DNA of 64,000 bases from Streptomyces sp. NRRL WC-3742 (lineage in GTDB: Bacteria > Actinomycetota > Actinomycetes > Streptomycetales > Streptomycetaceae). Position numbers and translations under genes: made by a program. The notes beneath the pieces are model-generated. The model worked only from the letters and a program-made list of their open reading frames with translations. It ran no database searches and was not told the DNA's origin. The stretch lies in contig NZ_JOCF01000039.1 in NCBI RefSeq assembly GCF_000720635.1, forward strand, positions 1 through 64,000. Direction: 5' to 3'. This document shows, one piece after another, positions 14,662 to 53,800 of this stretch (its first letter is position 1; every line of letters begins with the position of its first letter).

Positions 14662-15711
14662 TTACTTCTGGGTGAGGGTGCGGCCGTAGCGGTCGGTGTC
14701 GTGGAAGAAGTCGGGGATGGTGTTGAGGTCGCCGGTGGTGGAGACGGCGTCGTAGACGTGCTTGGCGACGACGAGGTCGAGGACGCCGAGGCCGAAGGGG
14801 GAGAAGATGACGGGCTTGTCGGCGGGCGGGGTGATGCGGGAGGCGAGGACGTCGTCGAGGGTGCCGGCGATGAAGTCGCGGTTGCCGGTGGCCTGTTCGG
14901 CGAGGTGGGGGGAGGTGTCGGCCTTGAGGCAGTGCTCGATGTCGTCGACCGCGTTCCAGGAGGAGAGGATGATCTCGGTCGAGAGGTCGCGCAGGGAGAG
15001 GTGCAGGACCAGGGGGTTGTGGGAGAACCAGGCCGGGTCGTGGACGTGGGGCTCGCCGGCGACGGTGGTGAAGACGACCAGGTCGCTGGAGCGGATCAGG
15101 TCCTCGGCGGTGGCGTGGATGGTGACGTCCGACGGCTGCGAGCGGCGCAGGTAGTCGGAGAAGCCCTCGGCGTGCTCGGCGGACAGGTCGTGCACGCCGA
15201 TCTCGTCGAAGGTGAAGCCGGCCGCGGCCAGGTAGGTGTGGACGTAGCGGGCGATGAGGCCCCCGCCGACGAAGCCGAGGCGGCGCGGGGTGGTGCCGCG
15301 GGCCTCGCTGAGGGTGAGGGCGGCGAGGGCGGCCGAGGCGGCGGTCCTGGCGGCGCTGATGATGGAGCTCTCCAGCACGGCGAACGGGTAGCCGGTTTCG
15401 GCGTCGTTCAGGACCAGGACCGCCGAGGCGCGCGGGATGCCCGCGGCGACGTTCTCCGGGAAGCTCGAGATCCACTTGATGCCGTGCACGCCCACCTCGC
15501 CGCCCACGGAGGCCGGCAGGGCGATGATGCGCGAGGACGGCCGGTCGGGGAAGCGCAGGAAGTACGAGTCGGGGTTGACGGTCTCACCGGAGCCGTGCAG
15601 CCGGTACGCCTTCTCGACCGCCGCGATGACGGCCTTCTCCTGGCCGGCCGTGGCCTGGTGCACCTGGGCGCCGGAGATCACGGCGAACGTCGGAATGCGG
15701 GACAAGGTCAC
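14662..15711 (-). CDS. Ornithine cyclodeaminase-family dehydrogenase, SbnB-like (2,3-diaminopropionate synthesis)
   Basis: A 349-aa protein of the ornithine cyclodeaminase/mu-crystallin fold. The Rossmann motif reads RLGFVGGGLIARYV, and KWISSFPEN is the conserved substrate-side motif. In siderophore and viomycin-type pathways SbnB oxidises N-(1-amino-1-carboxyethyl)-glutamate to release L-2,3-diaminopropionate, working after an SbnA PLP enzyme. The partner SbnA-like gene is at 34983-35975. This is the last gene of the ACP-KS-CLF-KR operon, 40 bp after the KR. Start is GTG 15711. The substrate is inferred from the partner, not proven. Confidence 0.85.
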   Translation of the reverse strand: MTLSRIPTFAVISGAQVHQATAGQEKAVIAAVEKAYRLHGSGETVNPDSYFLRFPDRPSSRIIALPASVGGEVGVHGIKWISSFPENVAAGIPRASAVLVLNDAETGYPFAVLESSIISAARTAASAALAALTLSEARGTTPRRLGFVGGGLIARYVHTYLAAAGFTFDEIGVHDLSAEHAEGFSDYLRRSQPSDVTIHATAEDLIRSSDLVVFTTVAGEPHVHDPAWFSHNPLVLHLSLRDLSTEIILSSWNAVDDIEHCLKADTSPHLAEQATGNRDFIAGTLDDVLASRITPPADKPVIFSPFGLGVLDLVVAKHVYDAVSTTGDLNTIPDFFHDTDRYGRTLTQK

Positions 15712-15751
15712 TTCTCCACAAGCTAGGAACGGGAACCCGGGAACGGGTGGG

Positions 15752-16480
15752 TCAGATGGTGAGGCCGCCGTGGACCTCGAACACCGAGCCGGTCACGTAG
15801 GCCGCACGGTCGGACGCCAGGAAGCCGACGAGTTCGGCGACCTCCTCGGGGCGGCCCAGCCGGCGCAGCGGCACGCTCTGCAGGATCTTGCCGATGGCGG
15901 CCTCGGAGGCGCCGCCCACCATGTCGGTGTCGATCAGGCCCGGGGCGACGGCGTTGGCCCGCACGCCGCGCGGGCCGAGTTCCTTCGCCAGGCTCTTGGT
16001 GAAGGCGATGATCCCGGCCTTGGACGCGGCGTAGTTGGACTGCCCGGCGTTGCCGTAGACCCCGGAGACCGAGGACAGGTTGATGACGCAGCCGCGGCCG
16101 CGCTTGGCCATGCCCGGCACCGCGGCCCGGCACAGGTGGTAGACGCCGTTCAGGTTGACGTCGATCACCTGCTGCCAGTCCTCGTCGCGCATCAGCACCA
16201 GCGGGCGGTCCCGGGTGATGCCGGCGGACGCCACCACGGTCTCCACCGGGCCCAGTTCGGCCTCGGTCTCGCGCACCCAGGCCCGCACGGCCTCGGCGTC
16301 CGAGGTGTCGCAGCGGGAGGCGACGACCTTGACGCCCAGCTCCTCGGTCTCCTTCAGCAGCGACTCGGCCGCGCTGTCGTCGGACCGGTAGCAGAAGGCG
16401 ACGTCGTGGCCGTCCTGGGCCAGGCGCAGCACGACGGCCCGCCCGATGCCCCGCGAACCACCGCTCACCAGCGCGGTCAT
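15752..16480 (-). CDS. 3-oxoacyl-ACP ketoreductase (FabG-type KR) of the type II PKS
   Basis: A 242-aa short-chain dehydrogenase. It has the NADPH loop SGGSRGIGR, NLSSVSG with the catalytic Ser, and YAASK with the catalytic Tyr/Lys. The AGITRD motif matches FabG. It should reduce the beta-keto group after each condensation by the KS/CLF. Its ATG overlaps the CLF stop codon (ATGA). Presence of a dedicated KR beside KS/CLF and of a MaoC dehydratase in the same cluster suggests a highly reducing rather than an aromatic type II PKS. Confidence 0.93.
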   Translation of the reverse strand: MTALVSGGSRGIGRAVVLRLAQDGHDVAFCYRSDDSAAESLLKETEELGVKVVASRCDTSDAEAVRAWVRETEAELGPVETVVASAGITRDRPLVLMRDEDWQQVIDVNLNGVYHLCRAAVPGMAKRGRGCVINLSSVSGVYGNAGQSNYAASKAGIIAFTKSLAKELGPRGVRANAVAPGLIDTDMVGGASEAAIGKILQSVPLRRLGRPEEVAELVGFLASDRAAYVTGSVFEVHGGLTI

Positions 16481-17595
16481 GACGTCACCTCGAGGAGTCG
16501 GAGCACGGCGACGGCGGCGGTGCCGTCGCGGTCCACGGCGGAGACGAGGGCCACGCGGCCGGCGGCCGTCGGGTCCTCCCCGGCGACCACGAGCAGCGCC
16601 GCGATCTGGAGGGAGGCGGACGCGGCGCCGGTGTCACCGAGCAGTGCCATCGACGGGATGCGGTCCAGCGCCTCGGCGGGCACCAGTTCGGCGAGCGCGG
16701 CGCGCTCGGCGATGCCCTCGGGGGTGGGGACGGCGGTGGTGACGGCGGCCCACACCTCCTCCGGCGCGACACCGGCCCGCTCCATGGCGCGGCGGGCACA
16801 GTAGTCGACGGTCGCCTGCGGGTCGTCGTCCACGTCGATCGCGGTGGCGACGGCCAGCACCGAGGCGAGCGGCGGCAGTTGGTTGGTGCCGGCCGGCTCG
16901 AGCAGCAGCAGGCCGCAGCCCTCGCCGAGCAGCGGGGCGGGCTCGCCGGGGGTGCCGGCGGCCTGCTCCAGCCAGCTGTTGGTGGGCGAGAACTCGTCGC
17001 CCGAACCGACCAGGCAGTTGTCGGCCCGGCCCTGGTCGAGCAGGCGTCGGGCGTAGTTGAGGGCGAGCAGCCCGCTCACCCGGCCGCCGCCGACCGTCGC
17101 GTTCGGGCCGCGCAGGCCGTGCCGGATCGCGGCCGCCCCTGCCGAGTGGTTCATGACGCAGCCGGGGATGAGGCCCACGTCGACGTAGAAGGGCCGCGCG
17201 TTGGTCAGCGAACCCCGGATGACCTCGGCCATGGACTCCTTGCCGCCCATGGTGGTGCCCATGACGACGCCGGTGCGGTCGTCGGTGCGCGGCACGGGGC
17301 CGCCGTCCGCGTCGACCAGCAGCTGGTCCGTGGCGAGCAGCGACATGATGGCCAGCCGGTCGAGCGTGTAGCTGTACTCCTGACCGAGCAGACCGGGACG
17401 GTCGAGGTCGGGGACCAAGCAGGCGTCGGGGCGGGGCAGCTTCTTGCCCTCGGGCTCGGTGCGGGCCGCGGCCAGCCCCGAGCGCACCCCGTCGGCGAAC
17501 TCCCGCCGGGAGAGGCCGTGCGCGGAGACCGCCGACCAGCCGGTGATGACGGGACCGTCGGCCGGCAGGGTGGCTGCGACCGGGGAGGCGGACAT
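16477..17595 (-). CDS. Chain-length factor (KS-beta) of a type II PKS
   Basis: A 372-aa thiolase-fold protein homologous to FabF. At the active-site position it reads GGGRVSGLLAL, so the nucleophilic cysteine is absent, which defines a chain-length factor. It should heterodimerise with the neighbouring KS and set the number of extensions. It overlaps the KS stop and the KR start by ATGA junctions, so the three are translationally coupled. At 372 aa it is slightly shorter than a typical aromatic CLF (~400). Confidence 0.9.
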   Translation of the reverse strand: MSASPVAATLPADGPVITGWSAVSAHGLSRREFADGVRSGLAAARTEPEGKKLPRPDACLVPDLDRPGLLGQEYSYTLDRLAIMSLLATDQLLVDADGGPVPRTDDRTGVVMGTTMGGKESMAEVIRGSLTNARPFYVDVGLIPGCVMNHSAGAAAIRHGLRGPNATVGGGRVSGLLALNYARRLLDQGRADNCLVGSGDEFSPTNSWLEQAAGTPGEPAPLLGEGCGLLLLEPAGTNQLPPLASVLAVATAIDVDDDPQATVDYCARRAMERAGVAPEEVWAAVTTAVPTPEGIAERAALAELVPAEALDRIPSMALLGDTGAASASLQIAALLVVAGEDPTAAGRVALVSAVDRDGTAAVAVLRLLEVTS

Positions 17596-18845
17596 CAGAC
17601 ACGCTCCTTGAGACTACCGAGCATCAGGACGGCGTTGTTGCCGCCGAAGGCGCTGGAATTGTTCTGGACGATCCGCACGTCGGCGGTGACCGCCTCGTTG
17701 GGGACGCAGTCCACCGGGCACTGCGGGTCCGTCTCCTGGTGGTTGATCGTCGGCGGGATGAACCCGTTGTGGATCGACAGCGCGCAGGCGGCGGCCGCCA
17801 GGGCGCTGGCGGCGCCCATGGAGTGGCCCAGCATGGACTTCAACCCGACGGTGCGGGGCGGGTTCTCGCCGTAGACGTCGATGATGGCGCCGGCCTCGGC
17901 GGCGTCGTTGGCGCGGGTGCCGGTGGCGTGGGCCGAGATGTAGTCCACCTCGTCCTTCTTGACGCCGGCGTCGGCCAGGGCGAGCTCCACGGCGCGGGCG
18001 ACACCGTCGCGGCTGGGCGCGGTGGGGTGCTGCGCGTCGCAGGAGAGGCCGTAGCCCAGGACCTCGGCGTAGATGCGGGCGCCGCGGGCGAGGGCGGAGT
18101 CCAGGGACTCCAGCACCAGGACGCCGCCGCCCTCTCCGGTGAGGATGCCCTTGCGGTTCTTGTCGAACGGGCGCACCACGTCGGGGGTGATGGCACCGAG
18201 CCGGTGGAAGGTGGCGAACGTCTTGCGGCACGTGGCGTCGGCGCCACCGCACAGCGCGATGTCGGCCTCGCCGGAGCGGATGACGTCCAGGCCGTAGCCG
18301 ATGGAGTAGTTGCCGGCCGCGCAGGCGGTGGTGAGCGTGACCGCCTCCGCGTCCCGTAGCCGCAGCTCGCGGGCGACGGCGGTGGAGAGCCGTCCCGAGC
18401 CCAGGCGCCGGGCCAGCACCGGGTCCAGTGCGTCGGGGGAACCGTCCCCGAGCTCCTGCTCGACGAGGACCCCGAGGTCGTGGGACTCGCCGTCGGTGGT
18501 GCCGATGCTGATCAGCACGTGCCGGTCGGCGAGCTCCTCGTCCGACAGTGCGGCGTCCTCGACGGCCTGACGGGCCGCCGCGACCGCGAAGTGCCCGGCG
18601 CGGCCGGTGTAGTCGAGCGGCATGTTGTGGATCCAGCGGGACGGCTCGAAGTCCTCGACCTCGGCGGCGTTCTTCCGCAGGAACCCGGTGGTGTCGACCC
18701 GGGTGAACGGGCGGGCCCCGGAACGGCCCTCCCGCAGCGCCACGGCGTACTCCTCGGCACCCGTGCCGATGCTGGAGATGACGCCGATGCCCGTGACAAC
18801 GACGCGGCGGCGGCCCTGGGGCGCCGGCTGGGGAGCAGTGGACAC
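17595..18845 (-). CDS. Ketosynthase alpha (FabF-type KS) of a type II PKS
   Basis: A 416-aa condensing enzyme. The N-terminal strand is VVVTGIGVIS. The catalytic Cys lies in TTACAAGNYS at about residue 175, and the two histidines in SAHATGTRAND and LGHSMGAAS. It elongates ACP-bound chains with malonyl units together with the CLF. I prefer GTG 18845 because AGGGAG lies just upstream; ATG 18860, which overlaps the ACP stop, is the alternative. The KS-CLF-KR set resembles those known from polyene-forming highly reducing type II systems such as ishigamide; this is family-level resemblance. Confidence 0.93.
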   Translation of the reverse strand: MSTAPQPAPQGRRRVVVTGIGVISSIGTGAEEYAVALREGRSGARPFTRVDTTGFLRKNAAEVEDFEPSRWIHNMPLDYTGRAGHFAVAAARQAVEDAALSDEELADRHVLISIGTTDGESHDLGVLVEQELGDGSPDALDPVLARRLGSGRLSTAVARELRLRDAEAVTLTTACAAGNYSIGYGLDVIRSGEADIALCGGADATCRKTFATFHRLGAITPDVVRPFDKNRKGILTGEGGGVLVLESLDSALARGARIYAEVLGYGLSCDAQHPTAPSRDGVARAVELALADAGVKKDEVDYISAHATGTRANDAAEAGAIIDVYGENPPRTVGLKSMLGHSMGAASALAAAACALSIHNGFIPPTINHQETDPQCPVDCVPNEAVTADVRIVQNNSSAFGGNNAVLMLGSLKERV

Positions 18846-18853
18846 GGGACTCC

Positions 18854-19105
18854 CTACCATCCCGCCGCGCGCGCCGTGACCCGGTGGATCGCGTCGACGT
18901 TGACCATCTCCGGCAGCTCCTCCATGTCGATCACGATGTTGAACTCCATCTCGATCGCGCTGAGGATGTCGATGAGCTTCAGCGAGTCCACGCCCAGCTC
19001 GTCGACCAGGTGCGTCGTGTCGCCGAGGGCGGAGGACTCGACACCGATCTGCTTCGCGACGATTTCCTTGATCTGAACGTGGTGCTCTGGCGTAACGGTG
19101 GACAT
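18854..19105 (-). CDS. Acyl carrier protein 1 (type II PKS ACP)
   Basis: An 83-aa ACP. The phosphopantetheine Ser is residue 41 in ELGVDSLKLID, followed by the acidic helix II (SAIEMEFNIVIDMEELPEM). It carries the growing polyketide for KS/CLF, KR and dehydratase. GAAGGAGAA precedes the ATG. It is the first gene of the operon and has NGTCAGY repeats upstream. Confidence 0.95.
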   Translation of the reverse strand: MSTVTPEHHVQIKEIVAKQIGVESSALGDTTHLVDELGVDSLKLIDILSAIEMEFNIVIDMEELPEMVNVDAIHRVTARAAGW

Positions 19106-19201: not shown

Positions 19202-19206
19202 CTGGT

Positions 19207-20003
19207 TCAGCGCTCCACGGCGCGCCGGAAACCGCGCAGTGCGGTGGGGACGACGGCCAGCAGGACGACCCCGAGGGAGCAGGCGACGACGATGCCGGGG
19301 TGGTCCGCCGGGAACCCGGACGTGGGCCCGGTCGGCTGGTTCCCCCACAGGACGCGGCAGACGGTGATGACGGAGCTGACGGGGTTCCACTCGGCCGCCG
19401 GACGCAGCCAGCCCGGCAGTCCGCCGACCGCGACGTAGGCGTTGGAGAGGAAGGAGAGGACGACCAGGATCAGCGCTCCGGTGCCGTCGATCGCCTCCAC
19501 GTTGCGCATGGTGGTGCCGAGCAGGATGCCGACCCAGAGCATGACGAACGAGAAGGCGAGCAGCACCGCGAAGCCGGCCGCGATCCGGAGCGGCCCTCCG
19601 TGGGGGCGCCAGCCGAGCAGGAGGCCGAGGCCGGAGACGGCCGCCAGTGCGACCGCCGAGGTGACCATGTCCGACAGGGCGCGGCCGACCAGCACGCTGC
19701 TGGCCGAGATCGGCATCGAGCGGTAGCGGTCGACCAGTCCGTCGCGCAGGTCGATGGCCACGCCCAGGGCGGTGGGCCCGACCCCGGCCAGGGCGACCTG
19801 GGCCGCGATCCCGGCCATGATGTAGTCCTCGTACGAGGCGACACCGGGAATGGTGATCGAGTCGCGGAACAGGTAGCCGATGGCGATCAGCATGACGGCG
19901 GGGGTCATGGTGACCAGCAGCAGCCTGGCCGGGGACCGGCGCAGGTGGCGCAGATGGCGGCCCGTGAGGACCGCGGTGTCGGCCAGGTAGGCTCCCAGCG
20001 CCG

Positions 20004-20007
<4 letters not shown>
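19207..20007 (-). CDS. ABC-2 type transporter permease (DrrB-like)
   Basis: A 266-aa integral membrane protein with about six hydrophobic segments. The conserved ABC-2 motif region (DLRDGLVDRYRSMPIS) occurs mid-protein, as in daunorubicin DrrB. It forms an exporter with the ATPase encoded just upstream; the ATGA junction indicates translational coupling. Likely role: product export or self-resistance. Confidence 0.92.
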
Positions 20008-36099: not shown

Positions 36100-36208
36100 C
36101 GACGGAGCCGAGGAGGCTCCGCTCCTTCGCTGGATGTACTGTTCGGGCGTCAGGACACCCTTGGATTCGGCACCTCGACGGGCGCCGCCGGGACTCGGGG
36201 GGAATGCC

Positions 36209-39269: not shown

Positions 39270-39418
39270 GTCCGCTCCTAATTTCTCGCGGGCTTCCGCG
39301 AAAGCGACCTGCATCATCTGGGCGGTGGAGAAGCAAGACGAGTCCAGGTGCTCCAAGTGCCGGCCCGCGATGGGCATCCCGGCACCCGCCTTCGGAACTT
39401 CACGCTATCGATCGGCAG

Positions 39419-40171: not shown

Positions 40172-40178
40172 GGGGGAC

Positions 40179-40222
40179 AAGGTCCACTGGTCGACTGACA
40201 CCGCGCTGACCCCCCGCTGACC
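40179..40222 (-). promoter_or_regulatory. SARP-type repeats and -10 of the PPTase gene
   Basis: On the minus strand GGTCAGC (40222-40216), GGTCAGC (40211-40205) and TGTCAGT (40200-40194) are spaced exactly 11 bp. Nine nt further is GACCTT (40184-40179), seven nt before the ATG. The same layout occurs at the KAS III gene. Confidence 0.72.
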
Positions 40223-40274
40223 GGCGGCTGCGGGCGCTTGCCACTGCTCGGCGCGGCCCATCAGGATGTGCGCC

Positions 40275-42744: not shown

Positions 42745-42758
42745 CCCGGCTGCCCGAG

Positions 42759-42786
42759 GGGGCCGCCGGCGCCGGGTGGCGGCCCC
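42759..42786 (+). terminator. Hairpin after the response regulator
   Basis: GGGGCCGCC (42759-42767) pairs with GGCGGCCCC (42778-42786) around a 10-nt loop, 14 bp after the stop codon. Confidence 0.6.
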
Positions 42787-42834
42787 GTCGAGAACAAGCC
42801 ATGTGACGTCTTGTCATGGACGCGCGTAGAACGA

Positions 42835-42882
42835 AGGCGTCGGCGGCCCCCTGGTGAGGAAGAGAGGGTGCCGCCGACGCCT
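42835..42882 (-). terminator. Hairpin downstream of SARP2
   Basis: AGGCGTCGGCGGC (42835-42847) pairs perfectly with GCCGCCGACGCCT (42870-42882) across a 22-nt loop. It lies 41 bp past the SARP2 stop. Confidence 0.6.
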
Positions 42883-42923
42883 GCGCGCTGGTGCACGGGG
42901 CATGCTGCCCATGCCCCGGTGAA

Positions 42924-43682: not shown

Positions 43683-43812
43683 CAAATTCCCCGTCCCTAG
43701 CGGTGAACTCAAGCCACAAGCTGTCCTGTTTGCAACCTCACGCCCGCCAACAGAGGTCGACATTGTTTGGAACGTCCTGCAAATGGGGAAAGCCTGGGTA
43801 TCACTCGCGCGC

Positions 43813-44175
43813 TCAAGTATCCGACGTGCGCGCCTCGTCCGGCCATGTACCTTCGTACATGAGTTGGTGAACTTGTGCCACCAGTCCGGCCTGCAGCCGT
43901 GACTCCACTCCCAACTTGGCCAGGATGCTGGCGACGTGGGCCTTCACGGTTCGTTCGGTCACGTGCAGCCGGTCGGCGATGCCCCGGTTGGAGTGCCCGG
44001 AGCCGATCAGGTCGAATACCTGCCGCTCCCGCCCGGACAGTGTCCCCACCCGGGTGAGTTCCGCGCGCCAGCGCGCCGACGCGAGGCCGCCGTCACCGTG
44101 CAAGCCAACCGCCCCCTGCTTCGCGTCCGCCACGAGAACCGCAGCCGCGCCCCCTTCTCCCGGCATGCCCTCCAC
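43813..44175 (-). CDS. Small LuxR-type HTH protein
   Basis: A 120-aa protein. The LuxR HTH occupies about residues 45-105 (LSGRERQVFDLIGSG, VTERTVKAHVASILAKLGV). The 44 preceding residues show no receiver phosphorylation site and are too short for a sensory domain. It may be a truncated response regulator or a stand-alone DNA-binding protein. Start choice (GTG 44175 or ATG 44166) is uncertain. It lies between SARP2 and MMPL2, same strand. Confidence 0.75.
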   Translation of the reverse strand: MEGMPGEGGAAAVLVADAKQGAVGLHGDGGLASARWRAELTRVGTLSGRERQVFDLIGSGHSNRGIADRLHVTERTVKAHVASILAKLGVESRLQAGLVAQVHQLMYEGTWPDEARTSDT

Positions 44176-46564: not shown

Positions 46565-46687
46565 GTTCCCCTCCTCACGAAGACGCACCCGGAATGCGGA
46601 GCGACGGGCCGACCCTCGTGAATCTAATGACGCTCCGGCAGGCGGGCACGGGTACAACTTCGCCGATTCGAAGGGGGGTTTTCTCTA

Positions 46688-46965: not shown

Positions 46966-48126
46966 CTACGCGCGGCCGATCTTGCCGTTGTGCAGGCCCT
47001 GGAAGAGGTTGAGCTTCTGGATGGTGCGAGTGCCCTCCATGAACTCCACCCCCCGGGCGTCCCTGGCGAGCTTGTCGAGCAGCGGGTGGTCCAGCCGCGC
47101 CCCGGGGCCGAAGAAGCGCGGCGCGTGGAGCGTCACCTCCTCGGCCAGCTCGCAGGCGCGGGCCTTCGCCGCCGAGGCGAGGTGGCCGTCGGAGGGACGA
47201 CGGTCGACGGCGACGGCGGCGCGGTACACCAGCCCGCGGGCCGCTTCGATGCGGCGGCCCAGCGTCTCCCACAACTCCCGCTCGGCGCCCCGCAGTTCCT
47301 TGCGGTTCTCGCCGACGTACTCGTGCGCCGCGCGGGCGATGCCCAGCGCGATGGCCGCGACGCTGGGCCGCAGCTGGTTGAAGACGGAGAGGATGCTCCA
47401 CATGCCCCGCCGGGTCGGCGGCAGGTGCGTGCCGAGGACCCGCTCCGCGGGCACGTGCACCCGTTCCAGGGTGATCCGGGAGAGCTGGACGCCCCGCAGG
47501 CCCAGGGTGGGCAGCGGCTCGGCCCGGAAGCCGGGCTCGGAGGTGTCCACGAGGACGGCCGTCACCCCGAGCCGGTCGGTGCCGGCGACCCGGGCGAAGA
47601 CGGCGCCCAGGTCGGCCCGGGCGCCGTTTCCGACGTAGCGCTTCTCGCCGTCGAGCAGGTACGAGCCGTCGCCGACGGGCGTGAGCGTGGTGGTCATCTC
47701 GCCGATGGCGGAGCCGCGTTCGGGCTCGGTGAGGGCGAAGCACGTCCACGTGGGCCGCTCGGCGAGGCGGCTGTACATCCAGTCCTTCTGCGCCTGGCTG
47801 CCGAGCACGCCGAGCAGCACCCCGCACATGGAGGCGCCGGGGGAGCCGACCATCGTGGCGGCGTCGCCGCGGGCGAGCTCCTCGCTGATGACGGCCTTCT
47901 CCAGGGTGGGCATCCCGTGGGCCGGGCCGGCGCCGTGCTCGGGGCCGGTGCGGTCCCAGTCGGGCGGGGCGAGGTGCCCGGCGAGGAGGCGGACGGCGGG
48001 CAGCTCGAGGAGGTCGTGGATGGTGTCCGGGTCGCGGTCGAGTTCGACGGCGCCGGCCCGCAGGTCCTCGGCCCACAGCCTGGCGTACCGCTGCGTGGTC
48101 AGGAGCGGCTCGGGCAGGGCTTTCAC
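46966..48126 (-). CDS. Acyl-CoA/acyl-ACP dehydrogenase (FAD)
   Basis: A 386-aa dehydrogenase of the ACAD fold. CFALTEPERGS and RYVGNGARAD are the FAD/substrate-loop motifs; the C-terminal helices end in KLARDARGVEFMEGTRTIQKL, where the Glu of MEGT aligns with the catalytic base of medium-chain ACADs. It should introduce an alpha,beta double bond, probably on an ACP2-bound acyl group. GTG 48126 overlaps the previous stop (GTGA) and has GGGAGAAC upstream. It is the last gene of the KAS III operon. Other dehydrogenases in NRPS/PKS pathways oxidise aminoacyl-carrier substrates, so this is plausible but inferred. Confidence 0.88.
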   Translation of the reverse strand: MKALPEPLLTTQRYARLWAEDLRAGAVELDRDPDTIHDLLELPAVRLLAGHLAPPDWDRTGPEHGAGPAHGMPTLEKAVISEELARGDAATMVGSPGASMCGVLLGVLGSQAQKDWMYSRLAERPTWTCFALTEPERGSAIGEMTTTLTPVGDGSYLLDGEKRYVGNGARADLGAVFARVAGTDRLGVTAVLVDTSEPGFRAEPLPTLGLRGVQLSRITLERVHVPAERVLGTHLPPTRRGMWSILSVFNQLRPSVAAIALGIARAAHEYVGENRKELRGAERELWETLGRRIEAARGLVYRAAVAVDRRPSDGHLASAAKARACELAEEVTLHAPRFFGPGARLDHPLLDKLARDARGVEFMEGTRTIQKLNLFQGLHNGKIGRA

Positions 48127-48872
48127 ACGTTCTCCCTGGGACACTCTTGGTCGTCGTGCTCGCCGCCGTACACCCCGGCGAGGAGTTCGGAGGCGTACGC
48201 CTCGGCGCCGGGCCCGTCGGCGGTGAAGCCGTGGGCGCCGAGCAGGCGCAGCAGGGCGCGGTCGACCGCGGTGATCTGCGCCTGGAGCCGGGCGAGTTCG
48301 GGCGCGGCGCCCTCGTCCGGGTCGGCCTGTACGTCGGCCTGTACGTCGGACTGCGCGTGGGCCGGTGCGTGGGCCGGTGCGTGGGCCGGTGCGCCGGCCC
48401 CGGTCCGGGCCTCGGCGAGGTCGTCGAGGACGCCCTCGATCTCCAGCTGGTCGATCAGCGCGTCCGCCAGGGCGACCTTGACGAACTGCTGCAGCAGCAG
48501 CGGGGAGCCCTCGACCTGCCGGGACGCGAGGTGGGCCACGCAGGTCTCCCGCAGCCGCTCGGAGAGGCCCAGGCGCAGCCAGGCCAGCCCGGTGCCGAAG
48601 TGCGGGGTGGCGCTGCGATCGGCGCCGGGGCCGGCGCCCGGCCGCAGGGCGGCGAGCCCCGGCGGCAGCACGGAGAGGGCTTGTTCCTCCTCCGACTCGT
48701 CGAGCCCGTCGAGGAGTTCGCGCGGGGCGATGGCGTGCCCGCCCGGCCCCCGCGGCGGGGTGCCGGGGGAGAGCGCGCGGCTGAGCAGGGTGAGGGCCGG
48801 CACGAGGCCGTCGCTGCGGGCGCCGGACCGGGCCTCCCGCCAGGTGTCCCGGACCTCGGCCGGTGCGGTCAT
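48123..48872 (-). CDS. Truncated ACAD-like protein (C-terminal helical domain only)
   Basis: A 249-aa protein without a clear family signature at first sight. Its second half resembles the C-terminal four-helix bundle of acyl-CoA dehydrogenases: WLRLGLSERLRETCVAHLASR, then LLLQQFVKVALADAL, and LLRLLGAHGFTADGP near the end. The N-terminal and beta-sheet FAD domains are missing, as is the catalytic Glu. An Ala/His/Asp-rich linker (about residues 160-185) contains small PAHA and DVQA repeats. It overlaps both neighbours (ATGA, GTGA). I infer a non-catalytic partner of the adjacent dehydrogenase; the homology is by eye and moderate. Confidence 0.6.
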   Translation of the reverse strand: MTAPAEVRDTWREARSGARSDGLVPALTLLSRALSPGTPPRGPGGHAIAPRELLDGLDESEEEQALSVLPPGLAALRPGAGPGADRSATPHFGTGLAWLRLGLSERLRETCVAHLASRQVEGSPLLLQQFVKVALADALIDQLEIEGVLDDLAEARTGAGAPAHAPAHAPAHAQSDVQADVQADPDEGAAPELARLQAQITAVDRALLRLLGAHGFTADGPGAEAYASELLAGVYGGEHDDQECPRENV

Positions 48873-49756
48873 GGCCGCCTCAACTCCCTCGTGAAGAGCG
48901 TGCAGTGGGCCAGGAAGTCACGTTCCCGGTCGTAGTCGGCGAGGACCACCGGCCCGTCCTGCGGGCCGAGGCCGAGCAGCGCCGACCAGCTCCCGGTGGC
49001 GGGCAGGCCGCCCTCCACCGTCGTCAACACCTGGCTGTGCACGGGCAGTTCGACCGGGGCGTCGGAGAGCCCGGCCCCCGCGACCACCCCGAAGGGTTCG
49101 GCAGGCCAGGCCGGGAGCGGGCCCGCCCCGGGGCGTCCCTGCGCCTGGCCGCCGAGCGGGCTCCGCCCGCCGTCCCAGTGCAGCAGCAGTGCGACCGCCG
49201 CGTCCCCGCGCACGGCCGCGCCGTCCGAGGGCTCGGGCAGCGCGAAGGGCTGGCTGCCCTGGTCGACGGCGAGCAGCAGCAGCCGTGTCCAGCCGCACCG
49301 GCGGGCGTACTCGACACCCGCCCGCAGTGCGGTGTACGGCGCCAGCGCGCCCTGGTCGGAGACGGCGAAGGCGAGCGGGTCGCCGGGCAGCCTGCGCCGC
49401 ACGCAGGAGGCGACGAGCTCGGTGTGCTCGAAGTCCGGTGCGGCGTAGGCGATCACGACCAACTGTGGTGCTTCGTCCTCGGCGATCGGGCCGAGGGCGT
49501 CGAGCGCGCCGTACGCGAGCTCCACCGAGGTGCGCCGGGGTGAGGCGGCGAACTGCTCCCGGTCGAAGGGCACGCCGTAGGGCTCGGCCAGTTCGCGGTA
49601 GTAACCCTCCGGCGCGGAGGCCGGGTCGTACGGCGCGCCCGTCCCGTCCGGGGCGTACGCGGCGCCCCGGACGAGCCGGGGCAGGGCCGGCGCCGCTGCG
49701 TTGTCGTCCGGCCCGCCGGGGGCCGCGGGCCGGACGGGCGCGCTCGCGCGGAACAT
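48869..49756 (-). CDS. Degenerate KAS III/thiolase-like protein
   Basis: A 295-aa protein with the strand order of KAS III N-terminal halves: VVIAYAAPDFEHTELVASCVRRRL, then AVSDQGALAPYTALRAGVEYARR where KAS III has its A-C-x-S-G nucleophile, then WTRLLLLAVDQG and AVALLLHWDG. The cysteine is replaced (Q-G) and no His/Asn pair is evident, so condensation activity is unlikely. It lies between ACP2 and the truncated ACAD. By analogy with KS/CLF it may be a structural partner of the KAS III at 52817-53749. Confidence 0.65.
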   Translation of the reverse strand: MFRASAPVRPAAPGGPDDNAAAPALPRLVRGAAYAPDGTGAPYDPASAPEGYYRELAEPYGVPFDREQFAASPRRTSVELAYGALDALGPIAEDEAPQLVVIAYAAPDFEHTELVASCVRRRLPGDPLAFAVSDQGALAPYTALRAGVEYARRCGWTRLLLLAVDQGSQPFALPEPSDGAAVRGDAAVALLLHWDGGRSPLGGQAQGRPGAGPLPAWPAEPFGVVAGAGLSDAPVELPVHSQVLTTVEGGLPATGSWSALLGLGPQDGPVVLADYDRERDFLAHCTLFTRELRRP

Positions 49757-49758
49757 GG

Positions 49759-50016
49759 TCAGGCGCCCGCTTCCGCCGCGACGAAGCCGGCGAGGGAGCC
49801 CACGGTCTCGAAGTGGGTCATGTCGAGCTCGTCGGCGTCGAACTGCACGTCGAGGATCTCCTCGATGGTGATGAGCAGTTCGAGGGCGCTGCTGGAGTCG
49901 AGGCCCAGCTCGTCGAAGAGCCGGACGCTCTGGTCGACGTCGTTGACGTCCTTGTTGAGGACCTCGGAGAGACCCTTGCGGACGGCGTCGACGTACTTCG
50001 GGTCGGTGTCGCTCAT
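49759..50016 (-). CDS. Acyl carrier protein 2 (aminoacyl-ACP type)
   Basis: An 85-aa ACP. The phosphopantetheine Ser is residue 41 in ELGLDSSSALELL, followed by an acidic recognition helix (TIEEILDVQFDADEL). GAGGAG lies upstream of ATG 50016. Its place beside the ATP-grasp ligase and decarboxylase matches BtrI in butirosin clusters, the carrier on which Glu is loaded and decarboxylated. It lies 77 bp downstream of the decarboxylase stop. Confidence 0.93.
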   Translation of the reverse strand: MSDTDPKYVDAVRKGLSEVLNKDVNDVDQSVRLFDELGLDSSSALELLITIEEILDVQFDADELDMTHFETVGSLAGFVAAEAGA

Positions 50017-50093: not shown

Positions 50094-51380
50094 TCAGTTG
50101 GAGCCCTCGGCGGCGGGGCGGTGCAGCCGCTGGCGGCCGAGCATCACCTCGACGTCGTCGCGCTCGCGGATCAGGTGCGCCTTGCCGTCCAGGACGAGCA
50201 CCTCGGCCGGGTAGCCGTGGCTCAGGAAGTGCACCGGCGAGGCGGTCGGCCCGTACGCGCCGGAGCGCTGGACGCCGACGAGGTCGCCGGGGCGCAGCGG
50301 CGGCATCGGGACCTTCTTGCCGATCAGGTCGTTGGGCGTGCACAGCGGTCCGGTGATGTTCCACGGCTCGGTGGCGGGCTCGTCGAGCCGCTCCAGCGCC
50401 GCCATCGGGAAGTTGCGCTTGACGTACGAGCCGATGCCGACCGCCGCCATGTGGTGGTTGGTGCCACCGTCGGTGACGGCGAAGTTCTCGCCCATCGAGG
50501 TCTTGGTGTAGCGCACCCGGGTGACGTACGTGCCGGAGGCGGCGACGAGGAAGCGGCCGAGCTCCATGATGAGCCGGGTGTCGGGGTGGCGGGCGGAGAA
50601 GTCCTCGATCAGCGGGTTGAGGCCCTCGGCGAGGACGCCCAGGTCGAGGTCCTTCTCGTTGTCGAAGTAGGCGATGCCGAGGCCGCCGCCGACGTCCACC
50701 ATCTCGAGAGGGAAGCCGAGTTCGGCGGAGAGCTCCTCGGCGAGGCCGAAGATCCGCCGGGTGTTCTCGACGACCGACTCCTCGGAGAGGATGCGGGTGC
50801 CGAGGTAGACCTGGATGCCCATCAGACGGATGTTCGGGTAGCGGCCGGCGAGGCCGGAGCCCTCGGCGCGCAGCAGCTCCTCGTCGGTGCCGAACTGGCG
50901 GGGCTTGCCGCCCATGGTCAGGCCCGAACCCTTGACCTGGAAGCTCGGGTTGACGCGCAGCGAGACCGGGGCGACGATGCCGCGCTCGCGCGCCAGCTCG
51001 TCGATCAGGCCGAGCTCCTCGACGGACTCGCAGACGATCGAGTAGATGTCCTCGTCCAGGCAGGCTTCGACCTCGTAGCGGCTCTTGCCGGGCCCGAGGA
51101 AGATGACGTCCTTCGGCTGGACCCCGGCCCGGCGGGCGGTGACGAGCTCGGTCAGGGAGGACACCTCGGCGCGGGCGCCGGAGTCGTGCAGCAGCGCGCA
51201 GATCGCGATGTTGGGGTTGGCCTTGAGGGAGTAGAAGAACTCCAGCGAGGGGTGGACGGCCTCGCGCAGCCCGGCGAAGCGGGTGGTGATCTCCTCGCCG
51301 TCGTACAGGTACAGCGGGGTGCCGAACTCCTCGGCCAGTTCGGTGATTCCGAGGCCCTGGACCTCGTAGGGGACGCTCAC
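50094..51380 (-). CDS. PLP-dependent decarboxylase (DAPDC/BtrK-like), probably acting on aminoacyl-ACP
   Basis: A 428-aa fold-III PLP enzyme of the diaminopimelate/ornithine decarboxylase family. Lys53 in YSLKANPN binds PLP; VDVGGGLGIAYF is the glycine loop, ELGRFLVAASG follows, and GPLCTPND plus SGAYG complete the active site of the dimer. BtrK of butirosin biosynthesis decarboxylates glutamyl-ACP to GABA-ACP, and the surrounding ATP-grasp and ACP genes make the same chemistry likely here. The amino acid is not provable from sequence. Free diaminopimelate as substrate is unlikely given the context. GTG 51380 overlaps the ligase stop. Confidence 0.88.
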   Translation of the reverse strand: MSVPYEVQGLGITELAEEFGTPLYLYDGEEITTRFAGLREAVHPSLEFFYSLKANPNIAICALLHDSGARAEVSSLTELVTARRAGVQPKDVIFLGPGKSRYEVEACLDEDIYSIVCESVEELGLIDELARERGIVAPVSLRVNPSFQVKGSGLTMGGKPRQFGTDEELLRAEGSGLAGRYPNIRLMGIQVYLGTRILSEESVVENTRRIFGLAEELSAELGFPLEMVDVGGGLGIAYFDNEKDLDLGVLAEGLNPLIEDFSARHPDTRLIMELGRFLVAASGTYVTRVRYTKTSMGENFAVTDGGTNHHMAAVGIGSYVKRNFPMAALERLDEPATEPWNITGPLCTPNDLIGKKVPMPPLRPGDLVGVQRSGAYGPTASPVHFLSHGYPAEVLVLDGKAHLIRERDDVEVMLGRQRLHRPAAEGSN

Positions 51381-52789
51381 GAACCGCTCCGTTCGGGGTG
51401 GGCCGCCAGGCGGCGGGTGATGTCGGCGTCGATGGCCTCGATCCGGGCGTCGTCGGCGGCGACGAGCACGCCGTACAGGCGGCCCTCGTAGCCGTCCGTC
51501 CCGGTCTCGTCGGCGGCCGCGGCGTTGACCGTGGCGTAGTTGTTCACGAACAGGCCCTCGGCGCCCGGGCCGGGCGCGGTCAGCAGCAGCCCGTCCAGGA
51601 GAGCGGCCAGTTCGCCGAAGGGCAGCGGGCGGGTGAGCCGCAGCGGCCAGTGCCGGGCCACGGCGACGTCGTCCGCCCCGGCGAGCCCGCCCTCGTGCAC
51701 CACGTTCTGGTACGTGGACATGTTGTTGCGGGCGTTGATCTCGATGACGGGGTAGAGGCCCTCGTCGGGGTCGACCATCGCGTCCACGCCGACCACGCCG
51801 TAGTAGCCGTCGGCGGCCAGCTGGGCGCCCAACTGCTGGGCGGTGGCGGCGATCTCGGCGACCTGCGCCTCGGAGAGCCGGGCCGGGATGCGGTGGCCCT
51901 TGTGCACGCCGTTCTCGGTGAGCAGCTCCTTGACGAAGTCGAAGTGCACCGACCCGTCCCGGCCCACCGTGAACTGGTAGTTGAGGTCGCAGCGCTTGGC
52001 CACCCACTCCTCGATCACCAGCGCGGTGCGCGGGGCCCCGCCCTCGGCGGCGGCCGCCTTCTCGGCCTGCTGGACGGCCATCCGGTGCAGCCGGCTCAGC
52101 CGCTTGGCGGAGTCCAGCACCACGATGCCCTTGCCGGACACGCCGAAGGCGTCCTTGAGCACCACCTTGGTCCCGGCCTCGAGGAGTTCGGACGCCGCGG
52201 CCACGGCCTCGGCCAGCTCCTCCAGCGTCTCGCAGGCCCAGCCCTGGGCCTGGCGGATGCCGAGCCGGTCGGAGAGGCGGCGGCTGTACACCTTGCTGTT
52301 GACGCGCTTGCAGACCGCCGCGCCGGGCGCGCCCAGGGACAGGCCCGTGCGCTCGGCGAGCTGCTCCTCGATCACGGAGATGCCGTGACCCGTCAGCCGG
52401 GCGCCCTCGGGCGCCAGCGCGGCCAGGGCGCTCAGCAGTTCGGCGTCCTCCAGGGCGTCCTCGCTGACCGTGCGGCGCGGGTCCTGCCCGGCGACCACGT
52501 GCACGGTGGGCAGCTCGAGGCCGAGGCCCTCCAGGTAGGCGCGGTAGCCCTCGTCGAGCGGGGTCTTCAGCACGACGTGGTCGTTCTTGCCGCCGAGCAG
52601 CAGCGCGAACTCGTCCATGCGGTTCACCACCGCGCTGCCCGCGTGCGAGGCGACCCGGGGCAGCGCCGGCTCGCCGATCGCCCAGTGGTTCTCCACCTCG
52701 AAGTTTCCGAGGAAAACCAGCGGGGTGTCGGCGGAACCGGTCACGGCGCGCTTGAGTCGCGCGCTGAAACCGGGGGACGGAAGATGCAT
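51377..52789 (-). CDS. ATP-grasp ligase (BtrJ-like aminoacyl-ACP ligase)
   Basis: A 470-aa ATP-grasp protein. The central domain shows VVLKDAFGVSGKGIVV (phosphate-binding loop), LVIEEWV, and VIEINARNNMSTYQ with the metal-binding Glu/Asn pair. The N-terminal about 170 residues are a family-specific domain. BtrJ-type enzymes use ATP to attach an amino acid to the ACP phosphopantetheine thiol. Here ACP2 is the likely acceptor. GAGG precedes the ATG. It could also load the A-less NRPS T domain, but no evidence favours that. Confidence 0.86.
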   Translation of the reverse strand: MHLPSPGFSARLKRAVTGSADTPLVFLGNFEVENHWAIGEPALPRVASHAGSAVVNRMDEFALLLGGKNDHVVLKTPLDEGYRAYLEGLGLELPTVHVVAGQDPRRTVSEDALEDAELLSALAALAPEGARLTGHGISVIEEQLAERTGLSLGAPGAAVCKRVNSKVYSRRLSDRLGIRQAQGWACETLEELAEAVAAASELLEAGTKVVLKDAFGVSGKGIVVLDSAKRLSRLHRMAVQQAEKAAAAEGGAPRTALVIEEWVAKRCDLNYQFTVGRDGSVHFDFVKELLTENGVHKGHRIPARLSEAQVAEIAATAQQLGAQLAADGYYGVVGVDAMVDPDEGLYPVIEINARNNMSTYQNVVHEGGLAGADDVAVARHWPLRLTRPLPFGELAALLDGLLLTAPGPGAEGLFVNNYATVNAAAADETGTDGYEGRLYGVLVAADDARIEAIDADITRRLAAHPERSGS

Positions 52790-52816
52790 GTCGACCTCGC
52801 TCGAAAGGTGATCTCG

Positions 52817-53749
52817 TCAGTGTTCGAGGACCATCGCGGCGAACGTCGCCCCGAGCCCCACGCTGGTCATCAGGTAGCGGTCGCCGGGGCGCAGCCGCCC
52901 CAGCTCGGTGGCCTTCTCCAGGTTGATGAAGGGGTCCGCGCCGAAGCAGTGCCCGGTGCTGCCGACCAGGTCGAGGAAGACCTTCTCGATCGGCAGGCCG
53001 AGGGCCTTGCAGACGCCCAGCCAGGAGAGCCGGTTGACGTTGTGCGGCAGGACCAGCGCCAGTTCGTCGAGGGAGCAGTCCGCCTCGGCGAGGGCCGCCT
53101 CGATCACCTCGTACAGGCCCGGCCCGTACAGGTCCTGGAAGTCCTTGGCGGCGGCCTCGTCCATCGTGAACTGGTCGCCGAAGCGCGGGTACGTACGGGT
53201 GGCGTACCCGAGGAGCCGGTTCGGACCGGAGCGGTCGGCGCTCACCAGGACGGCGACGGTGCCCTCGCCCATCACGGTCACGTCCGGGATCGACTGGGTG
53301 TGCACGGTGCACGCCTTCTCGCCGGCCAGGATCAGCGCGAGCGCGTCCGGGTCCGGGTCGGAGGCGAGCAGCGTGCCCGCGAGGTCGAGGGCGAGCAGCC
53401 CGGAGGCGCACGCGTGGTGGGAGACGACGAACGCGGAGGCGTGCTCCAGCCCCAGTTCGGCCTGCACCGGCCCGAGGGAGGTCATCGGGTACGGGAGCGG
53501 TGAGGGCATGGTGCGCGCCTGCAGCACGTACCGGACGCGCTGTTCCTGGCCTCGCAGTTCCACCAGCTTGGTCGCGGCGCGCAGCAGCAGGTCGGTCTCG
53601 CCGGCCGCGGGGTCGCGGCACACCTCGGCGAGACCGTAGAAGCGCTGGTAGCGCCTCAACTGGACGTCCGTGAGCTGGAGTTTCTCCTGGAACTGCGAGA
53701 TCTGGATCGTGTCGGGAAGGTAGCTGGAGACGGCCGTGATCGACGTCAT
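52817..53749 (-). CDS. KAS III-like condensing enzyme/acyltransferase
   Basis: A 310-aa FabH-fold protein. Cys114 (SHHACASG) and His236 (LPHNVN) are in place, but where FabH has Asn (GNT) this protein has His267 (GHCFGADPF). The altered third residue occurs in KAS III relatives with unusual donors or acyl-transfer rather than decarboxylative condensation. It probably takes the aminoacyl unit from ACP2 and starts the polyketide chain. ATG 53749 has no Shine-Dalgarno and a promoter-like hexamer sits 7 nt before it, suggesting a leaderless transcript. First gene of the seven-gene operon. Confidence 0.88.
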   Translation of the reverse strand: MTSITAVSSYLPDTIQISQFQEKLQLTDVQLRRYQRFYGLAEVCRDPAAGETDLLLRAATKLVELRGQEQRVRYVLQARTMPSPLPYPMTSLGPVQAELGLEHASAFVVSHHACASGLLALDLAGTLLASDPDPDALALILAGEKACTVHTQSIPDVTVMGEGTVAVLVSADRSGPNRLLGYATRTYPRFGDQFTMDEAAAKDFQDLYGPGLYEVIEAALAEADCSLDELALVLPHNVNRLSWLGVCKALGLPIEKVFLDLVGSTGHCFGADPFINLEKATELGRLRPGDRYLMTSVGLGATFAAMVLEH

Positions 53750-53756
53750 GCCCACT

Positions 53757-53800
53757 ACGGTCGCTGGCTCCGCTGACGCCCAACTGACGCCGTGCTGACC
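53757..53800 (-). promoter_or_regulatory. SARP-type repeats and -10 of the KAS III operon
   Basis: On the minus strand GGTCAGC (53800-53794), CGTCAGT (53789-53783) and CGTCAGC (53778-53772) are spaced exactly 11 bp. Nine nt later is GACCGT (53762-53757), then 7 nt to the ATG. This is the cleanest of the five sites. Confidence 0.75.

What the first reader, a model, noticed from the sequence alone, without database searches (positions are those of the whole stretch)
14662..53800. Hybrid cluster joining a highly reducing type II PKS, an aminoacyl-ACP (BtrJ/BtrK-like) starter pathway and an NRPS
Seen: KS, CLF, KR, ACP1 and MaoC; ATP-grasp ligase, PLP decarboxylase and ACP2; NRPSs with an N-terminal C domain and a TE. 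Known: BtrI/J/K make GABA-ACP from Glu; KS/CLF/KR/DH sets make polyenes. Inferred: a decarboxylated amino acid starts the polyene chain, and the TE may use its amine to close a macrolactam. I know of no described product with this combination, and no amine-protecting enzyme of the macrolactam type is visible in the window.
Basis: partly seen in the sequence, partly recalled or inferred. Interest (0 to 1): 0.85.

Follow-up and report, generated by a model that had tools for sequence, protein, structure and literature searches.

The report
Polyene-tailed enamidonin-type lipopeptide gene cluster
This stretch of a soil bacterium's genome most likely makes a ring-shaped lipopeptide whose tail is a polyene joined through beta-alanine; it looks like a new variant of a known antibiotic family and offers an explanation for the beta-alanine in the known molecule ishigamide.

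Summary
The genes reported are real and form one cluster (14,662-53,749). KS and CLF are of ishigamide (iga) type: KS 73% identical to Iga11. Two genomes with a KS 90-92% Iga11-like hold the set on one contig, others on several. The operon with the ATP-grasp gene is a conserved seven-gene cassette (exact order in 49 of 71 loci with room). It also occurs in NRPS clusters without an iga-type KS and beside fatty-acyl-AMP ligases, so it need not prime a polyene. Ishigamide is polyenoyl-beta-alanine; enamidonin/autucedine lipopeptides contain acyl-dehydro-beta-alanine and two Dap. Best reading: the cassette makes beta-alanyl-ACP from Asp, the polyene goes onto its nitrogen, the unit is dehydrogenated, and the NRPS adds D-Dap, Dap, an aromatic and an aliphatic residue before ring closure. 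A decarboxylated amino acid as polyene starter is not supported. The cluster looks like a mosaic of two subfamilies with a swapped cassette; module 2 has lost its A domain at a Dap position. New variant of a known kind.

The parts
14662..15711 (-). SbnB family, 2,3-diaminopropionate (Dap) biosynthesis
   Evidence: NCBIfam TIGR03944, 409.6 bits, cut-off 326.9
15752..16480 (-). KR, FabG-like ketoreductase
   Evidence: Pfam adh_short_C2/KR; TIGR01830 just over its cut-off
16477..17595 (-). CLF (KS-beta)
   Evidence: best solved relative 6kxd_B (Iga12) E 6e-124, next 1e-12
17595..18860 (-). KS (KS-alpha) of ishigamide type; active Cys and the Iga11 Asp113 equivalent present
   Evidence: 6kxd_A E 1.9e-197, next 9e-100; 72.8% identity to Iga11
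18854..19105 (-). ACP1 (presumed polyene carrier)
   Evidence: PP-binding; start
19207..20007 (-). ABC-2 transporter permease
   Evidence: PF01061
20004..20987 (-). ABC transporter ATPase, DrrA-like
   Evidence: PF00005, PF13732
21191..28438 (-). NRPSb: C-A-T-C-A-T-TE; codes DAWVFAAVCK (Phe-like) and DAFLLGAVIK (aliphatic)
   Evidence: code meanings recalled
28435..34986 (-). NRPSa: C-A-T-E-C-T; A1 code DVWEMTADDK (Dap/Dab type), module 2 without an A domain
   Evidence: code meaning recalled
34983..35975 (-). SbnA family, Dap biosynthesis (start at 35,975 or upstream)
   Evidence: NCBIfam TIGR03945, 381.2 bits, cut-off 349.95
36134..36973 (+). SARP regulator 1 (BTAD)
37062..39377 (-). MMPL transporter 1
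39419..40354 (-). 4'-phosphopantetheinyl transferase
   Evidence: PF01648
40266..40733 (+). MaoC-type dehydratase
   Evidence: PF01575
40802..42136 (+). sensor histidine kinase
42100..42744 (+). response regulator (LuxR type)
42745..42895 (.). apparent mosaic junction: best relatives change from the S. melanogenes/CBMA156 type to the iga type
42924..43763 (-). SARP regulator 2 (BTAD)
43813..44175 (-). LuxR-type regulator
44336..46657 (-). MMPL transporter 2
46966..48144 (-). AcdA, acyl-CoA dehydrogenase-like; Glu at the catalytic position in 60 of 61 relatives
   Evidence: position of the catalytic Glu recalled
48123..48872 (-). AcdB, short acyl-CoA dehydrogenase-like partner
   Evidence: weak Pfam match at the cut-off; conserved neighbour
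48869..49756 (-). KASIIIb, KAS-III fold, active-site Cys apparently lost
   Evidence: model pLDDT 87.6, Foldseek E 2.3e-9 to MxnB, conservation (equivalence of the Cys position read by eye)
49759..50016 (-). ACP2 (presumed amino acid carrier)
   Evidence: PP-binding; Ser conserved 67 of 67
50094..51380 (-). PLP-dependent decarboxylase, BtrK-like
   Evidence: Lys conserved 69 of 70, the other a gap
51377..52789 (-). ATP-grasp ligase (PreAtp-grasp)
52817..53749 (-). KASIIIa, KAS-III-like enzyme with Cys-His-His in place of FabH's Cys-His-Asn

Best explanation
The cluster makes an enamidonin-type cyclic lipopeptide with a polyene tail. (1) The KS/CLF/KR/MaoC set builds a polyene on ACP1, as in ishigamide. 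(2) The ATP-grasp enzyme loads Asp on ACP2 and the BtrK-like enzyme decarboxylates it there to beta-alanyl-ACP2. (3) The KASIIIa/KASIIIb pair takes the polyene through its Cys and places it on the beta-alanine nitrogen. (4) AcdA/AcdB turns beta-alanine into dehydro-beta-alanine (an enamide). (5) The first C domain of NRPSa passes polyenoyl-dehydro-beta-alanine to Dap, which SbnA/SbnB supply and the E domain turns to D. Module 2 adds a second Dap although it has no A domain, probably charged by A1; NRPSb adds an aromatic and an aliphatic residue, and the TE closes the ring on an amine of Dap. Ishigamide would be the product of step 3 released early. Shown here: gene content, conserved active-site positions, family membership of KS/CLF and decarboxylase, Dap genes, NRPS layout, conservation of the set. 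Inferred: substrates, order of steps 3 and 4, trans-charging, ring closure.
For: KS and CLF: Iga11/Iga12 are the best solved relatives by a wide margin. G011 (KS 91.5% identical to Iga11) holds cassette, SbnA, SbnB, NRPSs, KS/CLF/KR and MaoC on one contig; G002 (90.3%) holds the same without SbnB and MaoC in the 60 kb read. Cassette: exact seven-gene order in 49 of 71 loci with room; KASIIIa Cys and His in 70 of 70, FabH's Asn replaced by His in 70 of 70; BtrK-like decarboxylase. The cassette core occurs without an iga-type KS in six NRPS clusters read here (G020, G023, G036, G044, G047, G050) and beside a FAAL-like ligase in 3 of 3 loci examined that show no NRPS in the stretch read (in L045 the FAAL-type C-terminal domain is below Pfam's cut-off). 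This fits acylation of the amino acid better than priming of a KS. Literature: ishigamide is polyenamido-propanoic acid (PMC11022428, passage); olenamidonins/autucedines contain acyl, dehydro-beta-alanine, D-Dpr, L-Dpr, Gly and Phe, and a 3-oxoacyl-ACP synthase (AutS/OleH) is proposed to join acyl groups to DHA-ACP (PMC11204786, parts 1-2 of 3). KS-less clusters G050 and G047 read Dap, (no A), Gly-like, Phe-like, the enamidonin set.
Against: No product is known for this strain. The iga and aut gene sequences could not be opened, so identity with them is indirect except for Iga11/Iga12. Modules 3-4 of the window read Phe-like and aliphatic, not Gly-Phe, so it is not enamidonin itself. In the published proposal the acyl is joined to DHA-ACP, that is after dehydrogenation, whereas ishigamide's saturated beta-alanine suggests the opposite order. 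Amide formation by a KAS-III-like enzyme is unusual (recalled). Substrate codes rest on recalled positions and meanings. Asp rather than Glu as the cassette's substrate rests on the known products only. AcdA and AcdB are not found beside the cassette in 3 of the 19 genomes without an iga-type KS (G020 S. rimosus, G021, G048). The cassette does lie near an iga-type KS in 18 of 50 genomes, which the starter model would also predict.
Confidence: 0.83

Rival explanations
1. One reading: the cassette makes an omega-amino acyl starter (GABA- or beta-alanyl-ACP) that primes the KS/CLF; the polyene then bears a terminal amine, which the TE uses to close a macrolactam.
For: The cassette's ATP-grasp gene lies within 40 kb of an iga-type KS on the same contig in 18 of 50 genomes; in Amycolatopsis it sits directly behind KS/CLF/KR (G027 and G033); BtrK-like decarboxylase.
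Against: 19 of 50 genomes with the ATP-grasp gene have no KS of 60% identity or more (at most 35 candidates per genome were scored), yet all 19 keep KASIIIa, decarboxylase, ACP2 and KASIIIb beside it; FAAL-like clusters use the same cassette; ishigamide, made by the closest characterised PKS, ends in a hydroxylated carbon and carries beta-alanine at the carboxyl end.
Confidence: 0.08
2. The cassette charges the A-less T domain of NRPSa module 2 with its amino acid, so that beta-alanine or GABA is residue 2 of the peptide.
For: Module 2 of NRPSa has a T domain with its Ser motif but no A domain, and a carrier-bound amino acid is available.
Against: All seven clusters read with the same two-protein layout and an A2 domain have a Dap-type code there and also the cassette (G002, G011, G020, G026, G036, G044, G049), so the cassette's presence does not depend on A2 being lost. 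The described members of the class have two Dpr residues.
Confidence: 0.05
3. The cluster is broken or its product is only ishigamide-like (polyenoyl-beta-alanine); the NRPS part is a passenger.
For: Ishigamide is what was isolated from the iga cluster.
Against: The three A domains of the window keep motifs A3, A5 and A7/8 (A10 pattern found in two of the three), the T domains and the TE keep their Ser motifs, SbnA and SbnB are both kept, and the set is conserved across families of Actinomycetota. C-domain motifs were not tested.
Confidence: 0.04

Closest known systems
Ishigamide (iga) cluster, Streptomyces sp. MSC090213JE08, MIBiG BGC0001623
   Same: KS 73% identical to Iga11, CLF closest to Iga12 among solved structures, KR, ACP and a dehydratase; listed as 'NRP + Polyketide' in PMC11085741 (passage); G011 and G002, with a KS 90-92% Iga11-like, carry cassette, Dap genes and NRPSs on one contig
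   Different: The window lacks the minus-strand NRPS (Gly-like, Phe-like, TE) found between SARP2 and SbnA in 7 of the 9 iga-type clusters whose stretch there was read (partly read in G004, absent at that place in G005); its modules 3-4 read Phe-like and aliphatic where they read Thr-like and Ile-like; module 2 lacks its A domain; the iga record itself was not read
Enamidonin / K97-0239 / autucedine / olenamidonin cyclic lipopeptides (aut/ole clusters of S. olivaceus)
   Same: Two Dpr residues, one of them D, a dehydro-beta-alanine unit and a 3-oxoacyl-ACP synthase proposed to join the acyl chain (PMC11204786 parts 1-2 of 3, PMC12843350 passages)
   Different: There the acyl chain is a saturated or unsaturated fatty acid from acyl-CoA and the ring holds Gly and Phe; here a dedicated polyene PKS and other residues 3-4 are predicted. 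The aut paper (Org. Lett. 2022) was seen only as a reference
Butirosin side chain (BtrI/BtrJ/BtrK)
   Same: Carrier-bound decarboxylation by a BtrK-like enzyme and an ATP-grasp loading enzyme (BtrJ recalled)
   Different: No butirosin-type transferase or deprotecting enzyme showed up by Pfam among the genes scanned; the ATP-grasp profile's best solved relative is PGM1 (E 1e-9); KAS-III pair and dehydrogenase pair are extra
Skyllamycin / kitacinnamycin type II PKS-NRPS hybrids
   Same: Polyene type II PKS feeding an NRPS (PMC6510318 passages)
   Different: No isomerase family showed up by Pfam among the genes scanned; Dap and dehydro-beta-alanine genes instead

Membership tests
Ishigamide-type highly reducing type II PKS | KS and CLF closest to Iga11 and Iga12 | tested here: met
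   among solved structures only; identity
Ishigamide-type highly reducing type II PKS | Asp113 of Iga11 (release of the beta-ketoacyl chain) conserved | tested here: met
   GTTDGESH aligned in both; role from PMC8358021 passage
Ishigamide-type highly reducing type II PKS | separate KR, dehydratase and ACP in the cluster | tested here: met
Ishigamide-type highly reducing type II PKS | same cluster layout as the iga record | tested here: inconclusive
   compared with clusters whose KS is 90-97% Iga11-like, not with BGC0001623 itself
Enamidonin/autucedine-type lipopeptide cluster | genes for acyl-dehydro-beta-alanine: ATP-grasp, decarboxylase, ACP, 3-oxoacyl-ACP synthase, dehydrogenase | tested here: inconclusive
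   such genes are present and the paper names a 3-oxoacyl-ACP synthase; the aut gene list was not read, so the other genes are my expectation
Enamidonin/autucedine-type lipopeptide cluster | Dap supply and an NRPS with Dap at positions 1 and 2, epimerisation at 1 | tested here: inconclusive
   SbnA/SbnB, A1 Dap-type code and E domain are met; position 2 can only be read from relatives, as the window has no A2
Enamidonin/autucedine-type lipopeptide cluster | Gly and Phe as the other two residues | tested here: not met
   DAWVFAAVCK and DAFLLGAVIK: a relative with another ring, not enamidonin
Butirosin side-chain pathway | BtrK-type decarboxylase acting on a carrier | tested here: met
   by sequence only; action on a carrier not tested
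Butirosin side-chain pathway | gamma-glutamyl protection by BtrJ and its removal | not testable with these tools
   BtrJ was not at hand; no deprotecting domain was seen in the genes scanned
Macrolactam with amino acid starter (vicenistatin type) | stand-alone amino acid ligase for protection and a deprotecting peptidase (features recalled) | tested here: not met
   no such stand-alone genes among those scanned by Pfam at 14.6-60 kb

The most novel reading that the evidence does not exclude
Ishigamide-type gene clusters are enamidonin-type lipopeptide clusters, and ishigamide is their released polyenoyl-beta-alanine intermediate. In this lineage one Dap-specific A domain charges two T domains, which has let redundant Dap A domains be lost or decay repeatedly. 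The beta-alanine cassette behaves as a swappable unit: the window's cluster is an S. melanogenes-type cluster that lost its own cassette and took one of the iga type.
Probability: 0.6. Interest if true: 0.62.

Novelty: new variant of a known kind. Interest (0 to 1): 0.5.

Why it matters
It joins two product classes that the held literature describes apart: none of the 15 papers that name ishigamide is among the 17 that hold an enamidonin-class term or the related words searched. Ishigamide is called a metabolite of unknown function (PMC8358021, passage); olenamidonins inhibit drug-resistant enterococci (PMC11204786). The reading predicts that iga-type strains make polyene lipopeptides not yet isolated, gives a source for ishigamide's beta-alanine, and offers natural pairs (with and without A2, with and without KS) for testing trans-charging and tail exchange. 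It also gives a marker set (ATP-grasp, BtrK-like, KAS-III pair) for finding more acyl-dehydro-beta-alanine products.

Tried and rejected
Streptoaminal/5aTHQ cluster of S. nigrescens HEK616 as the identity of the family: rejected, because that cluster is described with two KS/CLF sets and an aminotransferase (PMC12187902 passages), while the S. nigrescens region read here (G050, 60 kb) shows no KS/CLF match. Pachycephalamide (PMC11446937 passages): other peptide and tail. Azaserine/triacsin (PMC10445470 passages): other gene set. GABA-derived 4-aminocrotonyl starter: the literature search for it gave nothing of use. Cassette as charger of the A-less module: rejected, because clusters with an A2 keep the cassette. 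'Decayed A3' in G028 and G042: dropped, since their core motifs are intact. A pattern of A loss at Dap positions holds for six modules whose place can be read in relatives (window, G024, G050, G047 at module 2; G041 and the G030 remnant at module 3). Two more (G027, G033) could not be placed, and the six are not all independent. Nucleotide identities at 21-34 kb are inflated by overlapping NRPS matches and were not used. The tree covers 51 of the 81 ATP-grasp rows (the window and 80 loci); those with unread context were left out.
Full report
What is there. The window is contig C39, bases 1-64,000, of an 8.74-Mb genome. Its genus also holds genomes with the same match coordinates as Kitasatospora sp. 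SUK 42 and MAA19, so the host is taken to be a Kitasatospora. Genes for a topoisomerase, a thymidylate kinase and a DNA polymerase III subunit and a tRNA-Thr lie left of 14.6 kb. From 14,662 to 53,749 there is one biosynthetic cluster, mostly on the minus strand. It also holds SbnB and SbnA, the two enzymes of 2,3-diaminopropionate (Dap) synthesis, both above NCBI's equivalog cut-offs; a PPTase, two SARPs, two MMPL transporters, an ABC transporter and a two-component system; and, in the 47-54 kb operon, two KAS-III-like and two acyl-CoA-dehydrogenase-like proteins.

The PKS. Among solved structures the KS matches Iga11, the ketosynthase of ishigamide, at E 1.9e-197 (next 9e-100), and the CLF matches Iga12 at E 6e-124 (next 1e-12). 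Identity of the KS to Iga11 is 72.8% over 400 residues. The Asp that promotes release of the beta-ketoacyl chain in Iga11 (PMC8358021, passage) is conserved. A highly reducing polyene-type PKS is therefore well supported.

The cassette. A scan of the species genomes with an ATP-grasp alignment matched 180 stretches; 126 encode a relative and the best 80 loci were kept. In 49 of the 71 loci with room on both sides, the order is exactly KASIIIa, ATP-grasp, PLP decarboxylase, ACP2, KASIIIb, AcdB, AcdA. Of the rows found in each family, KASIIIa keeps Cys and His in 70 of 70, with His in place of FabH's Asn in 70 of 70; the decarboxylase keeps Lys in 69 of 70 (one gap); ACP2 Ser in 67 of 67; AcdA Glu in 60 of 61. 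KASIIIb has no significant sequence match among solved structures. Its model (pLDDT 87.6) has the KAS-III fold (best match MxnB, E 2.3e-9, TM about 0.5), and it seems to lack the active Cys. The decarboxylase is closest to BtrK. The ATP-grasp profile is only distantly related to solved enzymes (PGM1, E 1e-9).

The cassette is not tied to the polyene PKS. Of 50 genomes searched whole, all have the ATP-grasp gene. 31 have a KS of at least 60% identity to the window's, 18 of them within 40 kb on the same contig as the ATP-grasp gene; 19 have none (which scored at most 35 candidates per genome). A further 23 loci were not searched because the machine was busy. All 19 keep KASIIIa, decarboxylase, ACP2 and KASIIIb beside the ATP-grasp gene, and 16 of 19 keep AcdA and AcdB. 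Six of the 19 were read as NRPS clusters: G020 S. rimosus, G023, G036, G044, G047 and G050. One more cluster (G013) shows no KS in the 60 kb read, although its genome has two elsewhere. Three loci without an NRPS in the stretch read were examined by Pfam: an AMP-binding enzyme of FAAL type in 3 of 3 (in L045 the C-terminal domain is below cut-off), an extra dehydrogenase pair in 2 of 3 and a stand-alone C domain in 2 of 3. A function that makes sense in all these settings is acylation of a carrier-bound amino acid, not priming of a KS.

The product class. Ishigamide is 3-(13-hydroxytetradeca-2,4,6,8-tetraenamido)propanoic acid (PMC11022428, passage): a polyene on the nitrogen of beta-alanine, with no amine at the far end. 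Olenamidonins and autucedines are cyclic lipopeptides made of an acyl chain, dehydro-beta-alanine, D-Dpr, L-Dpr, Gly and Phe; enamidonins share the backbone; and the 3-oxoacyl-ACP synthase AutS/OleH is proposed to join acyl groups to DHA-ACP (PMC11204786, parts 1-2 of 3; PMC12843350, passages). This is the reaction deduced above for KASIIIa/b. A 2022 paper on beta-alanine synthetases in autucedine biosynthesis was seen only as a reference. KS identity to Iga11 is 97.3% in G004, 94.8% in G006, 93.8% in G005, 90-92% in G001, G002, G007, G008, G009 and G011, and 89.5% in G003; all ten have the cassette's ATP-grasp gene. G011 holds cassette, SbnA, NRPSs, KS/CLF/KR, SbnB and MaoC on one contig; G002 holds cassette, SbnA, NRPSs and KS/CLF/KR in the 60 kb read. 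In the other eight the cassette and the KS lie on different contigs and not every part was read; SbnA was seen beside the cassette side in G001, G005, G006, G007 and G009, not in the stretch of G004. A published S. alfalfae genome lists a 77.9-kb 'thioamide-NRP, NRPS, ladderane' region as 100% ishigamide-like (PMC8493286, passage); the S. alfalfae genome reached here (G010) has the cassette and an 80% Iga11-like KS on two contigs that both end in an NRPS gene.

The peptide. Ten-letter codes were read with recalled positions and meanings. The window reads Dap type (with E), no A, Phe-like, aliphatic, TE. G050 and G047, without KS, read Dap, no A, Gly-like, Phe-like, which is the enamidonin set. 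All seven clusters with the same two-protein layout and a readable A2 have a Dap-type A2. Iga-type clusters G002 and G011 follow the shared Dap-Dap protein with two different NRPSs, one Thr-like and Ile-like, one Gly-like and Phe-like, both with a TE. The A-less module 2 of the window keeps its T domain; 58 residues, which include the start of the T domain, lie between the end of the C domain and the T motif. Six A-less or remnant modules that can be placed all lie where relatives have a Dap code; two cannot be placed. A quick tree needs three changes for presence of A2 among 11 labelled clusters. The simplest reading is that A1 charges both T domains.

A mosaic. Five relatives were compared gene by gene. 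From SbnB to SARP1, MMPL1 and the PPTase the window is closest to Streptacidiphilus melanogenes (for example KS 87%, against 70-71% in G011 and G002), and for RR-HK-MaoC to strain CBMA156 (88% DNA identity over 2,570 bases). From SARP2 to KASIIIa (42.9-53.8 kb) it is closest to the iga-type clusters G002 and G011 (ATP-grasp 85-87%, against 65% in S. melanogenes). In S. melanogenes the cassette sits between MaoC and the PPTase; in the window these two genes adjoin and the iga-type cassette lies beyond the regulator genes. This would explain why the window has two SARPs and two MMPL transporters. The ATP-grasp tree places the window with the iga-type clusters of L009, L011, L012 and L020 (99% SH-aLRT).

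Spread. The window's genome has one copy of the ATP-grasp gene; 22 of 70 genomes of the genus, the window's included, have a relative at E 1e-100 or better, some of them only 46-48% identical and of unread context.

Verdict. The cassette most likely supplies N-acylated (dehydro-)beta-alanine, not a polyene starter. The cluster is a polyene-tailed variant of the enamidonin class. Not shown: the substrate of the ATP-grasp enzyme, the order of acylation and dehydrogenation, trans-charging, and the product itself. Literature searches were limited to an open-access library. In what I saw of the 15 papers opened (passages of 14, two of three parts of one) no polyene-tailed enamidonin is described, but subscription journals are mostly missing there.

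Noticed in passing
42745-42895 and 40110-40194: Two switch points of an apparent mosaic cluster: cassette side of iga type, KS/NRPS side of S. melanogenes type; the S. melanogenes-type cassette is missing between MaoC and PPTase.
   Followed up: yes
L101-L103 (G002), L155-L157 (G011): These iga-type clusters carry one Dap-Dap NRPS beside two alternative TE-ended NRPSs on opposite strands (Thr-like/Ile-like and Gly-like/Phe-like), as if one head could give two peptides.
   Followed up: partly
L051, L053, L045: Cassette beside a FAAL-like ligase, with an extra acyl-CoA dehydrogenase pair in two of them, and no NRPS in the stretch read (Thermobifida, Microbispora, S. canus): probably acyl-dehydro-beta-alanine lipids of unknown kind.
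   Followed up: partly
L030, L036: No AcdA/AcdB match beside the cassette in loci with Dap genes (S. rimosus and strain WM6378): a saturated beta-alanine version would be expected.
   Followed up: no
L129-L134 (Amycolatopsis): The ATP-grasp gene sits in the KS/CLF/KR operon while the rest of the cassette lies about 19-32 kb away in two pieces.
   Followed up: partly
14465-14539: A tRNA-Thr gene directly beside the SbnB end of the cluster.
   Followed up: no
56097-59267: A 1056-residue frame with a C-terminal lysylphosphatidylglycerol-synthase-type membrane region just outside the cluster; the flank at 55.9-57.1 kb matches G002 and L081, probably unrelated.
   Followed up: no
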